Origin: Trichodelitschia bisporula
Taxonomy: Eukaryota > Ascomycota > Dothideomycetes > Phaeotrichales > Phaeotrichaceae
Length of the DNA stretch: 64,000 nt
NCBI GenBank assembly: GCA_010356995.1
Contig: ML996697.1
Span: forward strand, 904,105 to 968,104
Reading direction: 5' to 3'
Part shown: positions 11,860-60,088 of the stretch, piece after piece
Numbering within the stretch: the stretch's first letter is position 1
Layout: the number at the start of each line of letters is the position of its first letter
Translations under genes and position numbers: made by a program
The notes under the pieces: generated by a model
The model's input: the letters and a program-made list of their open reading frames with translations, nothing else
The model's database searches: none
Told to the model about the DNA's origin: nothing

Positions 11860-14800
11860 TTAGCAAATGAATTCCATGATCAGCACCCGGCCAGACGGAC
11901 ATCCCCAGCCTACCTTACCCTCGTGGACAGCAGCGCCAAATTTCGAACTGCGATACTCGGCTGGAAGCCAAAGAAGCTTTTCCGTGCCTATGGCTACCCA
12001 TTGCTCCTGGAAAATTATGGACCGTGGAAGATTCGATGCCGACGCCAGCTGGTTGCCGTCCGGCGAGAAGGCCACGGCCCTGAACGGACCCGAATGGCCC
12101 TTGAGCTCCTGCAGCGCCTTTCCCGACCCGGCGTCCCACAGCCTGNNNNNNNNNNNNNNNNNNNNNNNNNNNNNNNNNNNNNNNNNNNNNNNNNNNNNNN
12201 NNNNNNNNNNNNNNNNNNNNNNNNNNNNNNNNNNNNNNNNNNNNNNNNNNNNNNNNNNNNNNNNNNNNNNNNNNNNNNNNNNNNNNNNNNNNNNNNNNNN
12301 NNNNNNNNNNNNNNNNNNNNNNNNNNNNNNNNNNNNNNNNNNNNNNNNNNNNNNNNNNNNNNNNNNNNNNNNNNNNNNNNNNNNNNNNNNNNNNNNNNNN
12401 NNNNNNNNNNNNNNNNNNNNNNNNNNNNNNNNNNNNNNNNNNNNNNNNNNNNNNNNNNNNNNNNNNNNNNNNNNNNNNNNNNNNNNNNNNNNNNNNNNNN
12501 NNNNNNNNNNNNNNNNNNNNNNNNNNNNNNNNNNNNNNNNNNNNNNNNNNNNNNNNNNNNNNNNNNNNNNNNNNNNNNNNNNNNNNNNNNNNNNNNNNNN
12601 NNNNNNNNNNNNNNNNNNNNNNNNNNNNNNNNNNNNNNNNNNNNNNNNNNNNNNNNNNNNNNNNNNNNNNNNNNNNNNNNNNNNNNNNNNNNNNNNNNNN
12701 NNNNNNNNNNNNNNNNNNNNNNNNNNNNNNNNNNNNNNNNNNNNNNNNNNNNNNNNNNNNNNNNNNNNNNNNNNNNNNNNNNNNNNNNNNNNNNNNNNNN
12801 NNNNNNNNNNNNNNNNNNNNNNNNNNNNNNNNNNNNNNNNNNNNNNNNNNNNNNNNNNNNNNNNNNNNNNNNNNNNNNNNNNNNNNNNNNNNNNNNNNNN
12901 NNNNNNNNNNNNNNNNNNNNNNNNNNNNNNNNNNNNNNNNNNNNNNNNNNNNNNNNNNNNNNNNNNNNNNNNNNNNNNNNNNNNNNNNNNNNGATGCCGA
13001 CGCCAGCTGCTTGCCGTCCGGCGAGAAGGCCACGACCCTGACCGCACCCGAATGGCCCTCGAGCGTCTGCAGCGCCGCATCCCACGTATCTTGCATGTTA
13101 GGTTGGAAGAGTATCCAGTCGGGTATCTGCATCTGGAATTGCTTTCGAATGATACTCATTTCCGGAGCAAAGATGAGTGCAGAAATGTATGTTTGCAGCG
13201 GCGCGTGCTCGATAATCCACCGGTTCTTTAGGAGAAATCTCTTTGCGTCGAAAAGAAAACTCTGGAGTTCGGTATTTTTGCCGCTCTCGGCCTATTGCGT
13301 TAGCTAACTTTTGAGCAAAAAATTGCGGCTCTCATACCGAAAATAGCGACTGCAGTGTGTTAACTGCATTGACCGACTCCGTCATTCTCTCAATGAGGCC
13401 CATGGCTTCGAGCCAATGCAAAAAATGCTCCTTCAGGAAGACCTGCACTGCGTCTTGGTAGAGCAAAGGTTCTTTGCTGTTCTCAAGATGGTGCACCCAG
13501 TACTGGCAGGCGTACTGGACTTCGGCTGGCAAGTACATTTTTATTGTTTTATCGCTGATTTCGGCCCGCAGTTTTCCAGGATCTTGGATTCCGATGCTGC
13601 AGATGTCGTTTTTGAGGCCTTTAGACATGAGCTGGAGACATTTGATGGCAACCTTTCCATGCATTTCGTGCTCATCCACCCAAAATTCACCCGCAGCCTT
13701 TTCGGTGTCCACAAGGAAGTCGCGAAAAGAAAGATGCAGGAGCCTTACCGGCTTCTTTTTGTCCTCCGGGATACTGAGGACGGAGTGTAGCGAATCTAAT
13801 CTGATCTCGATGTCGTCTTCTGAAACTCCAAGGAGTTGAGCAATTGAAATAATGGAGAGTGGAGTAGCAAGAGTGATGATGATGCCAACAATCTCACGAA
13901 ACTCTGCCACAAGCTTAGCTTTGGCCTTGTTGCCGGGTTGATCGGCAATCTGCTGGTCCAAAATCGGGAGATATGTCCTTTCAAGGTTGGATCCCTCATG
14001 CTGGTGCTCCAGGATAGCGGCAAGAGTCTTCTTAGGATTCCATTTTAGATCGGCGATGAACCGACACACCGTAGCAGCGAAGATGAACAATGGGATCGCC
14101 ATCTCAACCAGCTTTTGGATCGTTTCATCTCCTGGCCAGTCTGACGGCAATCGGGCACGACTGAGGAAATTGTGTTTCCTTCGTATCCTGGCAAACTCGT
14201 GATGCAGGTACAAGGCAAGATCGCGCCTGATTGTGTCTTGCTGGATTACGTGGAGGACGACATCAAGATGTGTTTCTTTTGACATCTCGATGAACCCAAG
14301 ACGAATCGGAAGCTCCGGACGGCTGGTTATGAATATCCGGAGCTGGACTGAAGACACATCCTTCCCCTGCTCTAGGATCTGAATGAGGCTCCTCACGTCC
14401 TGCTCCTGCTCACACTCGTCCAACGCGTCAACCACAACGATCAGAGGCGAGAAGTTTAACGGAGCATCTTTCAACGGCTGAATAATGAGTTTTTGAAACT
14501 GTTCGTGTGAAGACTTGTCGACGATAGTGGGGTCATTATCAATGGTCCGCGCAATGAATGGTGACAATTGGGGCCGCCTGATCGCAAGTTGAGAGGCGAT
14601 AGTGGTGAAAAACTTGGCCACATTGCCGCGGTCGTCTTCACCTCGCTTGAAGAAGAAACTTGCCCCAAGCTGCCCCTTTCCCTCGAAACTCCGAGCAACC
14701 GTGCGAGAAATGGTGGACTTTCCAGTACCGGCAACGCCATTCAGCCAGAATATGAACTTGCCGTGAGGATCCTCGGCCCAGTCAGAAATGTCTCGTAGCA

Positions 14801-16313
14801 GCTCGGTCCTGGTATCTTGCAGACATTCCACTGAATGCTCATCTTGGTGTGAGTCGAATGCCGCGCCCGTAGCCATGGGCAATGTCGGGATCACCCTGAG
14901 CGTGAATGGGTCCATCTCAACTTTGGCCATCTCGACTTTGGCCGGCGGAAGCAACAACAAAAGCTCTTTAGCGTACGCTGCCGCCGTCCCCGCCGCGTAC
15001 GGCTGCCAGCTCTTGCTCTTGTGAGAGTCCGAGTAGTCGCAGATTCCCCGCACAGGCAGGCATTGAAAACTGTTCATCACCCCGGCGGCTTCCATTTCGA
15101 AGCACAGGACGCCTCCGAGTTTCGCGCTGACTTTGTCTCGTTCCTTGGCATCGCGCATGACTTGATTCCCCGAGGCGATCGTACCGTAGTGAATCATGAC
15201 ATGTTCACCACGCGTCTGGCGCCGCACGCTATGTTCTTGCTTACAATTGTTGCAGTTTTCCTCTCCCTCCTCATGGTTGTACTCAGGGTCGTATAGGACA
15301 TCGGGCCCGGCCTTGTCGCGAGCAAAAAGAGATTGGTTGCTGAGCTTGGCAAGATGTTCTACGAAACCAAATCTTCCAGTCAGATGGCTGGCCTTCAGCC
15401 TCGCCACCGCGTTCAGCAAGGCCATTGAGGGAGCGTTCAGAAATCCAGTCCGTTCAACCCCATCCGGCCTTGTCTTGCCCGAGTCGTACTGAATCACTCC
15501 GCCACAATCCTTGGACGGCTGGCAAACAACAACGTCCCCAAGCCGGATGTCGGCTTTTGCGCTCGGCACACCGCCTCCGATGCCGACCATGACGCCGAGT
15601 TGAACCGAAGTGAAGGTTGACTTCATTTGAGCAGCCGCCGAGGCCGCCGAGTTTGTGCCCGTCAGTCCCAGGACCATGAGGACGGTATTGTGTTTGCCAA
15701 CGCGGCCGAGCGTGTAGCTATTGGGATCGGACGCGTGCTGGGGGAGAGGTTGGTGCTCTTCATCGAGCATCTCCTTGGCTGCCGCAAGTTCAACCGGGAG
15801 AGCGCAAATCCACCCTATTGTGTAGTCTACGTGACGAAGTCGGCGGGCTGGCCCTCTGTTGGTGGCTCTCTGAAGGGCAAGTGGTGAAGATGAGGTCCGG
15901 AGAGTCGACGGATGCGGCTGCAAAGGAGCCGTCGGCGCAATCGGTGTTGCCGCTTGGGTATAAGAAGCTACCGATATGTTTAGGGATGGCGATGGTAGCG
16001 CCAAAAGAACGGTCTGGCTGACACTGCTCGCGGGGACAGGTGTGGTGGTCTCGCCAGCAACAGATGAGGAGGGACGCGAAAGGCTGGAAGAGGCACGAAA
16101 TTGGCCCCGTGTCCGGATCCGCTTTGCAGGTGGCATCTTGAAAACAATGGTGCTAGTCAAGAAATTGCGGACTTGTGAAAATGCAGGAGTGGAACTCGAG
16201 GTTGAAGGCGAGGCTTTGGGGCTTCCAGCTGAGCTCAACTGCGGAGCAGAATGCCAAGAATGGGGCTGTGAGCTGTCGACGACGAGATTGGAGGAGACAC
16301 TGCGACATGCCAC
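11860..16313 (-). CDS. NLR-like STAND protein: PNP_UDP_1 - NACHT - WD40 repeats (interrupted by assembly gap)
   Basis: Fungal NOD-like receptor architecture, as in proteins linked to heterokaryon incompatibility and non-self recognition. Exon 1 is 16313-13338 and exon 2 runs from 13291 to 11860. The 46-nt intron has donor GTATGA, branch GCTAAC and acceptor CAATAG. Residues 1-160 are Ser/Pro-rich. The nucleoside-phosphorylase-like domain (about 163-455) begins YTIGWICALPVELAAAK and contains GIGGGVP, RLGDVVV and CFEMEAAGVMN. The NACHT has Walker A GVAGTGKST (526-534) and Walker B LIVVVDALDEC (624-634), followed by FITSRPELPI. After the intron come FLFDAKRFLLKN and WD40 units with EGHSGAVRVVAFSPDG. 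The end, LWLPAEYR...SGRV, is the usual close of this family. The frames on either side of the gap differ only because the gap length is arbitrary. ATG 16313 gives the longest form; Met60 (16136) is an alternative start. Confidence 0.9.
12146..12992. other. assembly gap (847 N) inside the WD40 array
   Basis: Run of N. The sequence on both sides is a WD40 unit of nearly the same DNA sequence (GATGCCGACGCCAGCTG appears at 12034 and again at 12993). Collapse of near-identical repeats is therefore the likely cause. At 126 nt per unit the stated gap would hold about seven units, if its length is real. Confidence 0.95.
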
Positions 16314-17206
16314 GGAGCATCAAGTTCTCATGCCAACTGATCAGTTCGTAGACGAAGACTTCGCTGGAGGACATATCCGGTCGTTCATCCATGTACGCCG
16401 CCCACGCTGCTTGCGCCGTCTATGCCCGCATCGTAGGTGCTGTTTGCATGTCACTAATATGCAGATTGTGGATGTGTGAATATTGCTATGTGTATTGTGT
16501 GTGTATCTAGCTAAGAGAGAGAGTGCAAGAGCCCGCTCAGCAGGTGGAGAGTTGACTGCCAAGCCATGAGGCCGGCCTAGTCCATTACGTCTGATCTCAT
16601 CTTGCTATCTGACCTTGGGTCAACAGGTGCTCTACGGGATATCGAGACTGACCAGGGCTCGAGCATAAACAGGCTCGGGAGGTACGGGAGTGGCGGTCAT
16701 GGTTTGGGCGGGAGTTTAGCAGCACAGTGAGGGGCGGACAAGGCATGCAGACTGTTCCGATAGAGAAGATACGTAGTTGATTCTGCAGAAGAGGTGGCCG
16801 GATAATGTGTGAAATGGGTGTGGGGAGGAGCCCTGGTGCTGGATTGACGGCTCGATTGGAGTTGAGCAGACGACATCATATCAGTCATGTTGTTTCGAGT
16901 GTCATCATCGCGGGACTCGAGAAACATGCAGTACCGCAGCACAATTGAGCCCGCGGGAGCGTGCGACCATTCCAACTGCGAAGGAAAGATCTCATCCCCA
17001 TCGAGCAGAAAAAATTGCCCATCCCCAACTCCACGACTTGTCGTCAACAGACCATCAATGGCAAAAGGTTGAAGTGATAGACAGCGCCTAGCTTCCCCTC
17101 GAACTAGCCTAGCGGCTCCTCCCGTCCATCAAGCGGCCCCGCGTAGCCCGTAGTCTATCCCTCGCATTCCCGGCCTCACAAATATTTTACTCTATCACAG
17201 TTCGGC
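16314..17206. other. intergenic, no gene supported
   Basis: A minus-strand frame at about 16697-17047 contains LDGDEIFPSQLEWSHAP, but it has no ATG at its head and low-complexity sequence after it, so I do not call a gene. Confidence 0.4.
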
Positions 17207-29846: not shown

Positions 29847-30414
29847 GGACATGGCCTGGGTTGTAGTTGTCGTTTGTGGTGGTGAGTGATGAAGTGGTGT
29901 GGAAGTTGTGGAGAGAGTTGGAAAAGGTGATGGGCCGTACTCGGGTATATTCCCCCCGGAAGAGCAGTAGACACAGAGAATGCTGTATATATATGCCGCC
30001 GGCCGGGTAGTGGGCCAGTTTGGGTATGTACCAGCCGTTGTTTTATAAACCCTGCAACCCGCGGGCCGGCTGTGAGGTCTCGTTGCTGTAGTGTTGGATG
30101 ATGCGAGGGTGGAGGTGCGGGGCGGGGTATTGCTCAGCCTCGTGCGTACGCTGCTGATGGGGCGCTGGGTATACCCCGTAGNNNNNNNNNNNNNNNNNNN
30201 NNNNNNNNNNNNNNNNNNNNNNNNNNNNNNNNNNNNNNNNNNNNNNNNNNNNNNNNNNNNNNNNNNNNNNNNNNGGCGGCGGACGGTGATGATGAATGTT
30301 GGTGATGAAGTGGAGTGGAAGTTGTGGGGAGAGATGGACGGGGGGGCGGAGATGCTGAGGTGTATATATCCCTCCCACCCCTGGGTGGAAACAGTAAACA
30401 CTGAGAATGTGGTT
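29847..30414 (+). repeat. diverged tandem repeat, two copies about 428 bp apart
   Basis: 29847-29983 and 30275-30414 share GTGATGAAGTGG, GTGGAAGTTGTGG, a GTATAT(T/A) site and then ACACAGAGAATG / ACACTGAGAATG. An assembly gap (30182-30274) begins inside the unit, so the second copy is incomplete. Confidence 0.6.
30182..30274. other. assembly gap (93 N)
   Basis: Run of N that abuts a GGGTATACCCCGTAG palindrome-like element and the start of a repeat copy. Confidence 0.95.
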
Positions 30415-34089: not shown

Positions 34090-34502
34090 CTGTCGGCATA
34101 CCCAATGTCGGGATACCCGAAAGGCAGGCTTGGCACGGCGAACATCGAATTTGGTCAAGACGAATGGCCATCGATGGAAATCCACAAGCCCACAAACCTG
34201 CATTCCCCGCCAGCAACCGGCCAACGAGACCGAAGGACGGAGCGACACGAGGCACCCGAACCCCCAGTCGAAACTCCAGTCATCGAGCAAGACTCACCCC
34301 GTGAGAGGGAGTTGGACGAGCCGCGCGAGCCGAGTCCTGCATCAGAGCATCACGACGAGCCCATTGAGCTGCGCGAGCCAACCGAGCCAAATACGCCAAC
34401 CGAGCCAGATCAGCCAAACGAGCCGCACGAGCCTGGCCCCACGGAGGATGAAAGCCGAACTCGAAACACCAGGGACTGCACCTTAAGTGTAATCCACGTT
34501 GC
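34090..34502 (+). repeat. left arm of a 413-bp inverted repeat
   Basis: Pairs with 34557-34969 in reverse orientation across a 54-bp spacer. The arms have equal length and I see one difference (T at about 34477 versus the complementary C/G in the other arm). The arm encodes a Glu/Pro-rich reading (EPTEPNTPTEPDQPNEP) when read outward to inward on either strand. No terminal target duplication is apparent. Confidence 0.95.
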
Positions 34503-34556: not shown

Positions 34557-34969
34557 GCAACGTGGATTACACTTAAGGTGCGGTCCCTGGTGTTTCGAGT
34601 TCGGCTTTCATCCTCCGTGGGGCCAGGCTCGTGCGGCTCGTTTGGCTGATCTGGCTCGGTTGGCGTATTTGGCTCGGTTGGCTCGCGCAGCTCAATGGGC
34701 TCGTCGTGATGCTCTGATGCAGGACTCGGCTCGCGCGGCTCGTCCAACTCCCTCTCACGGGGTGAGTCTTGCTCGATGACTGGAGTTTCGACTGGGGGTT
34801 CGGGTGCCTCGTGTCGCTCCGTCCTTCGGTCTCGTTGGCCGGTTGCTGGCGGGGAATGCAGGTTTGTGGGCTTGTGGATTTCCATCGATGGCCATTCGTC
34901 TTGACCAAATTCGATGTTCGCCGTGCCAAGCCTGCCTTTCGGGTATCCCGACATTGGGTATGCCGACAG
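34557..34969 (-). repeat. right arm of a 413-bp inverted repeat
   Basis: Reverse complement of 34090-34502. Arm boundaries are sharp: outside CTGTCGGCATACCCAATG the flanks diverge at once, and inside GTAATCCACGTTGC the spacer begins. Confidence 0.95.
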
Positions 34970-57051: not shown

Positions 57052-59383
57052 ATGTCCCTCCGCCGCGTCTGGTACAAACTCTTCTCTAACGAACACACCC
57101 AGTTCCCCCCCTCCGACGCCCCGCCCTCCGTCCCACGCACCCGCTCCCTCTCGCGCCAGCGCTCCAAATCCCCCGCCCTCACCAGCATCCTCGAGGCCAC
57201 GCCTCCCCGCCCACAGGCGCCAGTCGAGCACAACCCCTCCTCCGCCTACCCCGCCGAAGCCGATAACGAAGATGCCTCCTCTGAGCCCCTCATAACCGAC
57301 CTTGCAACCCGCAGCATCCCTCCCGAATACGCGCCTCTCAAATCCGCAACCCCAGAGCCAGGCACGCGGCGCGAGGCGAGTCGGCGCGCGGGGAAGCGCC
57401 CGGCAAGTTTTGCGTGTGATGGCGATTCTGTGTCCATGTATGGCAGTCTAGGGCTGGGGCAGAGGGAGATCCACATTCCGACGCGGACGAGGTGAGTGAC
57501 GGTTGTCGGGCACACGCTCGGCCTCGGGTGCGCAGTAGATACTGATACCCCTCAGCAGCAGCCGCGTCGTAAGCAACGGCACGGGCACGAGCCGCAGGCG
57601 CAAGCGGCAAGGACGTGAGTTCTCCGCCTCCTCGTCCGCCCCCACGACCCCGGACCTGCGCTTAGGCAGCTCAGACGACAGCGTTCGCTCCTACTCCACC
57701 CACACATCGAGCGTCACGCGCAGCCCCCCCCTTCTCTCGAAACCGAGTATAGATGCGGATCGCCTGGCGCCGGTCACCGAAGACGACCCCCGGAGCTTCG
57801 ATCTCGTGCAACCGGCGAGCGCCCCGGTGGGCGGCGGATTTGAGCTGGAGAAGAGGGTGGAGGAGATGTTCAGCGCGCAGCATCTGAGGGAGGTATTTGC
57901 TGACCCGGGGTTGTTACTGCGGTTTACGCATTTCTTGTCTAGTGGGAGGCCGGGGCGCATTCCGCTGCTGATATATTACCTCGATGCGCTCAAGGCGCTC
58001 CGGGCACTGGCGTACGCGAATGCGGTGAGCGAGGCGCTGGAACCCATTCCGGGACATGCGTTCACGGACAACCCACCGGGCCCGACGGTGAATGGCGTGT
58101 TGGAGGAGCGCGCGGAGCAGGCGTTCGATGCTCTGGTGCGCGATGATTTACCGGCCTTCGTGGGCCATGTGTTCACGCAGATCGCGGCGGATGCGATACA
58201 CAAGCGCATCACGGGCGCGGAGCCGCTGGAGCTCGCGGATGCGGAGGGATTGGCGGAGGTGTTCTGCCTCACGGACCCGAGTCGGGCGGATAACCCCATC
58301 GTCTATGCCTCCGAAGGTACCTTTCCCCTCCCCCCCCAAATGCCCATTCCCCCTAACCCGAAGCCAGAATTCCACAAAACAACCCAATACGGCGTCACCT
58401 ACTCCCTCGGCCGCAACCCCCGCTTCCTCCAAGGCCCCCGCACAACACCCTCCTCCATAACCACCCTTCAAGCAGCCCTCGCTCAACCAACAGAGTCCAC
58501 GCACCTCCTCCTCAACTACCGCCGCGACGGCTCGCCCTTCCTGAATCTCCTCCTCCTCGCGCCGCTCACCGACTCGCGCGGCCAGCTTAGGTACTGGCTA
58601 GGCGCACACGTCGACGCTACGCCCCTCGCACGGTCCTGCGCGGGGCTAGATGGGCTGCAGCGCTTACTTTCCCGCGGCGGCGAAGGCGGTGAAGCAGGCG
58701 CGCAGAACGAGTTGCAGGACCTATGCGAAATGTTCAACCTCGACGAGCTCGCCACCATATCCCGGCGCGGCGGCGCCATGCACCGGGACCTGCTCTCCCC
58801 CACACCCAACTTACACACCAAACGCAGTTTCAGCGGCGCGCCGCCGCCCGCGCATTTCTCCCCCGGTGTCGGGGTGCGGAGTTTGTTTCCGAAATACCTG
58901 ATCCTGAGGCCGCATCCGAGTCTGCGGATTTTGTTCGCGAGTCCCGCGTTAAGGACGCCAAGGCTGTTGCAGACCCCATTTTTGAGTAGGATTGGCGGGA
59001 GTCCGAGGGTTAGGGATGAGCTTACGGCTGCGCTTGCGGGGGGGCGAGGGGTTACGGCTAAGGTGCGCTGGTTGAGTGCGCGGGAGGGAGAAGGGGATGG
59101 GGAAGATGGGGAGGAGGGAAGGGTGAGGTGGATTCATTGTACGCCCCTGCTGGGACGGGAGGGGGTTGTGGGTGCTTGGGTTGTGCTTGTTGTTGATGAG
59201 GAGAGTGCGGGGGGGGAGGGAAGGAGGGTTAGTACGGGGTGGAAGCCGGCGCCGGTGGTGGAGGGGCGGAAGAAGGTTGCTGGACTTGGGGTTATTAGAG
59301 ACAGGACGGATGAGGCGCCGTTTGAGAGGGGGATGTCGGTAGGGGGGGGGAGTGAGAGGGGGGAGGAATGGGGACTCGAGTGA
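57052..59383 (+). CDS. RGS-LOV protein with a LOV domain lacking the photoactive cysteine
   Basis: A 755-residue signalling protein resembling the fungal RGS-LOV group (such as Botrytis BcLOV4). Exons are 57052-57491 and 57556-59383 (donor GTGAGT, acceptor CCCTCAG, phase 2). The start MSLRRVWYKLF begins a basic amphipathic segment, then a Ser/Pro-rich linker. The RGS-like domain covers about 250-365 (LREVFADPGLLLRFTHFL...VFTQIAADAIHKRI). The LOV domain covers about 395-510: NPIVYASE, TTQYGVTYSLGRNPRFLQGP, NYRRDGSPFLNLLLLAPL and RYWLGAHVDATP. In photoactive LOV domains the motif is GRNCRFLQG; here codon 58418-58420 is CCC, so residue 435 is Pro. The flavin-contacting Gln in the GAQVD motif is His. 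The two conserved Asn (NYRRDG, FLNLL) remain. The C-terminal region (KYLILRPHPSLRILFASPALR) matches the domain seen after LOV in this group. Light signalling by cysteinyl adduct is impossible. Confidence 0.88.
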
Positions 59384-60000: not shown

Positions 60001-60088
60001 TGGACGCGGAGGGAATTGAACCCCCGACCGTTCACAATATTGCATCAGGCAATGCAAAGCGAAAATCATACCCCTAGACCACGCGCCC
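60001..60088 (-). tRNA. tRNA-Ala (anticodon TGC) with a 16-nt intron
   Basis: 88 nt. Acceptor stem GGGCGCG pairs with CGCGTCC, including the G3:U70 alanine identity pair. Anticodon stem is TTCGC/GTGAA (one G:U) and the mature loop TTTGCAT. The intron occupies 60037-60052, one base 3' of the anticodon. The T arm GGGGGTTCAATTCCCTC has one G:U pair, and the discriminator is A. Confidence 0.92.

What the first reader, a model, noticed from the sequence alone, without database searches (positions are those of the whole stretch)
58300..58620. LOV photoreceptor domain with Pro in place of the adduct cysteine and His in place of the flavin Gln
The LOV core is otherwise well kept (NPIVYASE, TTQYGV, GRNPRFLQGP, NYRRDG, YWLGAHVDA). 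The cysteine that forms the flavin adduct, within GRNCRFLQG, is encoded here by CCC (58418-58420). The Gln that senses flavin protonation is His. Keeping the fold and the two flavin-binding Asn while losing both photochemical residues suggests a light-blind or redox/flavin-sensing RGS regulator. Loss of both key residues in one protein is not what random decay of the whole gene would look like.
Basis: partly seen in the sequence, partly recalled or inferred. Interest (0 to 1): 0.78.

Follow-up and report, generated by a model that had tools for sequence, protein, structure and literature searches.

The report
Fungal light-sensor domain lacking light-chemistry residues
A fungal gene encodes a protein with a well-kept blue-light-sensor (LOV) domain in which the two amino acids that normally do the light chemistry are replaced, so it has probably lost normal light sensing and may respond to something else; domains of this kind are already known from bacteria and archaea.

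Summary
An intact three-exon gene (57052-59383, + strand, 738 aa) encodes a LOV domain (aa 377-504) matching Avena phototropin LOV2 (PDB search E about 1e-24; 47 of 120 residues identical). The adduct cysteine is Pro418 (CCC, 58418-58420), the flavin-sensing glutamine is His481 (CAC, 58607-58609); both flavin-binding Asn are kept. The finding's interval contains a 51-base in-frame intron. 'RGS' is not shown: no Pfam hit, and a low-confidence model had no fold match with E <= 0.001.

Natural Cys-less (including Pro) and Gln-less (including His) LOV domains are in print. Of 97 prokaryotic Pro-type domains examined, 21 of 94 readable ones also lack Gln; none has His. So double loss recurs in nature and does not by itself argue against relaxed selection. 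Best reading: a LOV-like domain without canonical photochemistry, probably still flavin-binding, possibly redox-set. No fungal orthologue could be fetched, so fixation and selection remain untested.

The parts
57052..57491 (+). exon 1 of the LOV protein gene (N-terminus, disordered-looking by eye)
   Evidence: open frame and GT..AG splice model
57492..57555 (+). intron 1 (acceptor could also be 57558 or 57561, all in frame)
   Evidence: GTGAGT...CAG; three in-frame acceptors
57556..58316 (+). exon 2; holds the region aa 242-376 in the place where RGS-LOV proteins carry RGS, and the start of the LOV domain
   Evidence: no Pfam RGS hit
57839..58255 (+). region (aa 242-380) tested for RGS: not identified
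   Evidence: AlphaFold single-sequence model pLDDT 58.7, six helices; no PDB match with E <= 0.001
58244..58316 (+). LOV domain, first part (aa 377 to the intron)
   Evidence: PDB alignment, gene model
58265..58267 (+). TGC = Cys384, at the position of AsLOV2 Val416
   Evidence: sequence, alignment; Val416 side chain lies near Cys450 in AsLOV2 (PMC3867380, passages)
58317..58367 (+). intron 2, 51 nt, in frame and without stop
   Evidence: GTACCT...CTAAC...CAG; removal makes the LOV core alignment gap-free
58368..58678 (+). LOV domain, second part (to aa 504)
58418..58420 (+). [quoted passage not shown]
58514..58516 (+). AAC = Asn450 (AsLOV2 Asn482), kept
58544..58546 (+). AAT = Asn460 (AsLOV2 Asn492), kept
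58607..58609 (+). CAC = His481 in place of the flavin-sensing Gln
58679..59383 (+). linker and C-terminal region with a weak PAS-like stretch (aa 613-677)
   Evidence: PF08448 E = 0.096 and 0.06, below its cut-off

Best explanation
The gene encodes a fungal LOV-type signalling protein whose LOV domain has lost the canonical photocycle. Shown: the frame is intact, the LOV core is kept, Cys is Pro and Gln is His, the two Asn that hold the flavin ring are kept. Inferred: no flavin-cysteine adduct can form at the usual site, because Pro has no thiol; flavin is probably still bound; the domain acts as a light-independent module, fixed in one state or shifted by the redox state of the bound flavin (N5 protonation on reduction), and passes that to the flanking helical and C-terminal regions. 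The redox step is the least certain part.
For: Residues and intact frame. In print: natural BAT-LOV with Pro at this site bound modest amounts of flavin, could be reconstituted with more, is poorly photoreduced, and shifts conformation on chemical reduction (PMC4682037, section 7 read). AsLOV2 Q513H binds flavin but failed canonical photochemistry; the His variants of YF1 and NmPAL lost light response (PMC9098866, passages). 97 prokaryotic Pro-type LOV-like domains in the genome scan show that the type persists in nature, many of them from related haloarchaea. Third-position GC of the LOV part is 0.766, against 0.605 to 0.773 in four other reading frames of the window.
Against: No flavin binding or selection was measured. 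Pocket residues besides these differ (10 of the 23 positions compared, Pro and His included; among them Arg467 -> Gln and Phe509 -> Trp), which could mean that flavin is lost. BAT keeps Gln, which reads out N5; here it is His, so redox read-out may fail too. PMC3903614 Table 1 gives AsLOV2 Q513H a photocycle of 30 s, although its text groups Q513H with a variant without evident flavin reduction. Second-position GC of the LOV part, 0.516, is above that of the four control frames, 0.383 to 0.456.
Confidence: 0.48

Rival explanations
1. Relaxed selection on light sensing: the LOV domain is only a structural scaffold, possibly without flavin, and Pro and His accumulated once light sensing no longer mattered.
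For: Gln is lost in 21 of 94 readable Pro-type domains; in the class sample both Cys-less stretches that could be read at the Gln position lacked Gln (L139 Ser, L147 Leu). Several other pocket positions differ.
Against: Both flavin-binding Asn, the GRN-RFLQG core and the frame are kept. Of the 21 prokaryotic Pro-type, Gln-less domains only 5 keep the second Asn, as this one does. Gln is also missing in 7 of 23 readable Cys-bearing stretches of the class sample, so its loss alone is a weak sign of relaxation.
Confidence: 0.27
2. Relocated cysteine: Cys384, at the AsLOV2 Val416 position beside the old adduct site, forms an adduct or donates an electron to the excited flavin, so that some light sensing remains.
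For: Cys384 aligns with Val416, whose side chain is directed toward Cys450 and within 4 (the unit sign is missing in the held text, presumably angstrom) of it in AsLOV2 (PMC3867380, passages). Moving the cysteine to 494 or 513 in AsLOV2 gave photocycles of 69 and 44 s, at under 10% bleaching (PMC3903614, section 9). 4 of 96 readable prokaryotic Pro-type domains also have Cys in this column.
Against: The 453 relocation gave no measurable photocycle, and position 416 was not tested there. Cys at this position may be common in the fungal family irrespective of Pro (recalled, no call); one Cys-bearing stretch of the class sample, L131, also has it. His481 may quench or block.
Confidence: 0.1
3. 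Cysteine-independent light sensing: blue light photoreduces the flavin to the neutral semiquinone, which signals without an adduct.
For: Shown for Vivid and YF1 with Cys removed (PMC4682037, abstract and passages). In Pro-type BAT-LOV the Trp 16 residues before the Pro was found to hold photoreduction down: with it and two Tyr changed to Phe, photoreduction was similar to that of a Vivid variant, while changing the Tyr alone did little. This protein has Phe402 at that spacing (counted from the sequence).
Against: In those cases Gln was not the residue removed. WT BAT-LOV is poorly photoreduced. Another Trp, Trp477 (AsLOV2 Phe509), is new here and might quench (inference). His at the Gln site ended light response in YF1 and NmPAL.
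Confidence: 0.1
4. Assembly or base-calling error, or a pseudogene.
For: Reads were not available; the window has two runs of N elsewhere.
Against: At least two base changes are needed for Cys to CCC and one more for His; 738 codons are open with splice sites and coding periodicity.
Confidence: 0.05

Closest known systems
Natural cysteine-less LOV-like domains (LOV*), e.g. haloarchaeal BAT-LOV (Yee et al. 2015, PMC4682037)
   Same: Pro at the adduct-Cys position inside an otherwise kept LOV core
   Different: BAT keeps the Gln and has no Cys or Met; here Gln is His and Cys384 lies beside the site; archaeal regulator with a DNA-binding module versus fungal protein
Natural glutamine-deficient LOV receptors (Dietler et al. 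2022, PMC9098866)
   Same: Gln replaced, His among the replacements reported
   Different: The member tested there responds to light with Met at this site; here Cys is lost as well
Fungal RGS-LOV proteins (BcLOV4, MoRgs5, F. fujikuroi LovB; PMC12941744, PMC3248559, PMC10056346, passages)
   Same: LOV (or PAS/PAC) domain following an N-terminal region in a fungal protein
   Different: RGS not detected here; BcLOV4 is photoactive through a flavin adduct (PMC10793642 and PMC9308134, passages)
Fungal LOV proteins without a recognised output domain (F. fujikuroi LovA, 674 aa; PMC10056346, passages)
   Same: LOV without a recognised output domain
   Different: Orthology could not be tested

Membership tests
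Canonical LOV photoreceptor | LOV/PAS sequence similarity | tested here: met
   PDB hits E about 1e-24; PF13426 E = 8e-9, above its cut-off
Canonical LOV photoreceptor | adduct-forming Cys | tested here: not met
   Pro418
Canonical LOV photoreceptor | Gln in the last strand | tested here: not met
   His481
Canonical LOV photoreceptor | two flavin-binding Asn | tested here: met
   Asn450, Asn460
Canonical LOV photoreceptor | flavin binding and light-induced 390-nm species | not testable with these tools
   needs protein
Natural Cys-less LOV* (Yee et al. filter) | Cys absent, at least 9 of the other 10 conserved residues present | tested here: inconclusive
   Of the 9 residues that the paper's method text lists, 8 are kept and Gln is not; the text says 10 but lists 9
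Gln-less LOV (Dietler et al.) | Gln absent, several other conserved LOV residues present | tested here: met
   His481; whether Cys was required is not stated in the parts read
Fungal RGS-LOV | RGS domain before LOV | tested here: inconclusive
   No Pfam RGS (whole protein E up to 1; region E up to 10); low-confidence model, no fold match with E <= 0.001
Fungal RGS-LOV | orthology with BcLOV4 or MoRgs5 | not testable with these tools
   no fungal collection on hand; two viral-contig scans gave no relative
Fungal RGS-LOV | light-driven binding to anionic membrane lipids | not testable with these tools
   needs protein

The most novel reading that the evidence does not exclude
A fungal LOV domain that has moved its photochemistry: with Pro at the classic site and His at the Gln site, Cys384 beside the flavin serves as an alternative thiol and His481 as the proton relay, giving a light or redox switch with a different geometry.
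Probability: 0.08. Interest if true: 0.78.

Novelty: new variant of a known kind. Interest (0 to 1): 0.42.

Why it matters
If the domain binds flavin, it is a natural eukaryotic case in which both light-chemistry residues are gone while the flavin-binding Asn pair is kept. That would bear directly on whether LOV domains can revert to redox sensing, as proposed for their ancestry (abstracts of PMC4682037 and PMC9098866), and on whether a cysteine elsewhere in the pocket can take over.

Tried and rejected
Fungal orthologues: own genome not held; viral contigs gave no relative (3 stretches matched a pattern, none confirmed; 0). The genome collection scanned is bacterial and archaeal. The window itself holds no exact match to the Cys-bearing motif GRNCRFLQG on either strand. 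Pseudogene: held unlikely on frame and periodicity. RIP-like mutation: dinucleotide ratios of the gene (0.72, 1.10) do not stand out from the window (0.64, 1.22). Literature: nine searches listed no title about a fungal LOV protein naturally without the adduct Cys. Lists were cut (20 of 25; 20 of 261; 12 of 111), only an open-access library is held, and most listed papers were seen as listings only. The two Glantz et al. papers looked up by DOI, on RGS-LOV and on LOV diversity (DOIs recalled; the second title recalled), are not held.

Dropped rows: of 119 stretches (80 printed there, all 119 in the files), 20 did not reach E < 1e-3 by phmmer and 2 more (L002, L118) were short chance matches, leaving 97; at the Gln column 3 of these were unreadable (2 gaps, 1 X), leaving 94; at the Val416 column 1 was a gap, leaving 96. 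These are not independent: many are closely related haloarchaea. L120 and L014 lie in the same genome and show the same Phe at the Gln column, so they look like one domain; L120 and L121 come from a genome chosen for its Pro match and are left out of the class-sample statements. The class sample is L122-L150 (29 loci, 30 matched stretches), one locus each from 29 of the 82 genomes with a match, of 385 searched, so it leans to sequences like the query.

That favours the semiquinone rival, so I moved it from 0.08 to 0.10 and the best explanation from 0.50 to 0.48.

Full report
What is there. The window looks like DNA of a filamentous ascomycete (short GT-AG introns, fungal-type genes; my reading, no call names the organism, and no genome is held). 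On the + strand a three-exon gene, 57052-57491, 57556-58316 and 58368-59383, encodes 738 residues. Without it the LOV core aligns gap-free to Avena phototropin LOV2.

The domain. phmmer against PDB sequences gives LOV proteins, best E = 1.4e-24, query residues 377-504. Pfam gives PAS_9 at 8e-9, above its cut-off. Over 120 aligned positions 47 are identical to AsLOV2. Cys450 is Pro418, Gln513 is His481; Asn482 and Asn492 are kept as Asn450 and Asn460. Of 23 pocket positions compared (list partly recalled) 13 are identical and 10 differ: 414, 416, 450, 463, 466, 467, 470, 494, 509, 513. Position 494 is occasionally Leu in LOV domains (PMC3903614, passages), as here; the others were not assessed one by one.

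Is the gene intact? Base shuffles of exon 3 never stayed open (0 of 2000), and the two other forward frames hold 11 and 13 stops. GC by codon position in the LOV part is 0.656, 0.516, 0.766; four other reading frames of the window range over 0.578-0.623, 0.383-0.456 and 0.605-0.773, so the third position fits and the first two are higher. Cys to CCC takes at least two base changes, so a single miscall cannot explain it. Reads were not available.

The rest of the protein. The region aa 242-380 has no Pfam match up to E = 10 and one PDB sequence match, at E = 1.6, to a plant receptor kinase. A single-sequence AlphaFold model of it (pLDDT 58.7) is all helical, and Foldseek found no PDB match with E <= 0.001; a model of this quality cannot decide. 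A review describes two kinds of such fungal LOV proteins, with an RGS domain or without recognisable regulatory domains, and says that RGS5 of Magnaporthe interacts with two of three G-alpha subunits (PMC10056346, passages). This protein could be either kind.

How unusual is the pair of substitutions? A scan of bacterial and archaeal genome contigs for GRNPRFLQG found 119 stretches; 97 are LOV-like after dropping 20 that missed the threshold and 2 short chance matches. At the Gln column 94 are readable: Gln 73, Glu 8, Ala 4, Ser 3, Val 2, and Phe, Lys, Leu and Ile once each; His in none. Of the 21 without Gln, 5 keep the second flavin Asn. Many of the 97 are close relatives of each other. In a sample of genomes of one class, 82 of 385 had a match. 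Of the loci taken up (L122-L150, 30 matched stretches), 27 stretches have Cys; of the 23 of these readable at the Gln column, 16 have Gln and 7 do not (Met 3, Cys, Phe, Ile and His once each); the two Cys-less stretches that are readable there both lack Gln. The Pro + His pair was not seen in either set.

What is known. Yee et al. (PMC4682037; passages; section 7) report about 70 natural Cys-less LOV-like entries with replacements including Ala, His and Pro, and a Pro-type archaeal domain that binds flavin, is poorly photoreduced and changes shape on reduction. Its poor photoreduction was put down to a Trp (172) 16 residues before the Pro (188); with Phe there, and two Tyr changed as well, it was photoreduced like a Vivid variant. 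This protein has Phe402 at that spacing (counted from the sequence), which speaks for the semiquinone rival. Dietler et al. (PMC9098866; passages; section 9) report about 350 natural Gln-less receptors, His among the replacements. AsLOV2 Q513H bound flavin but failed canonical photochemistry, and the His variants of YF1 and NmPAL lost light response. PMC3903614 (passages) lists a 30 s photocycle for Q513H, while its text elsewhere groups Q513H with a variant without evident flavin reduction; the reports conflict.

A further observation. Cys384 (TGC, 58265-58267) aligns with AsLOV2 Val416. In AsLOV2 that side chain is directed toward Cys450 (PMC3867380, passages). Cysteines moved to 494 or 513 supported weak photocycles, one moved to 453 did not (PMC3903614, section 9). 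4 of 96 prokaryotic Pro-type domains also have Cys in this column. It may be a family trait in fungi (recalled, untested). It makes a relocated-cysteine mechanism testable, though not likely.

Verdict. I file it as a variant of the known Cys-less LOV-like kind, not as a canonical LOV photoreceptor, since two defining residues were tested and are absent.

Noticed in passing
34090-34502 and 34557-34969: A 413-nt inverted repeat, 100% complementary, with 54 nt between the arms; similar long open frames occur on both strands there. Could be a mobile element or an assembly palindrome.
   Followed up: partly
12146-12992 and 30182-30274: Runs of N, 847 and 93 bases. The first lies beside a NACHT-like frame at 13332-16319 and among WD40-like stretches (frames; the names come from reading the sequence, no call).
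   Followed up: no
60001-60088, - strand: tRNA-like gene with an unresolved four-base anticodon call, perhaps an intron-bearing tRNA.
   Followed up: no
   Followed up: no
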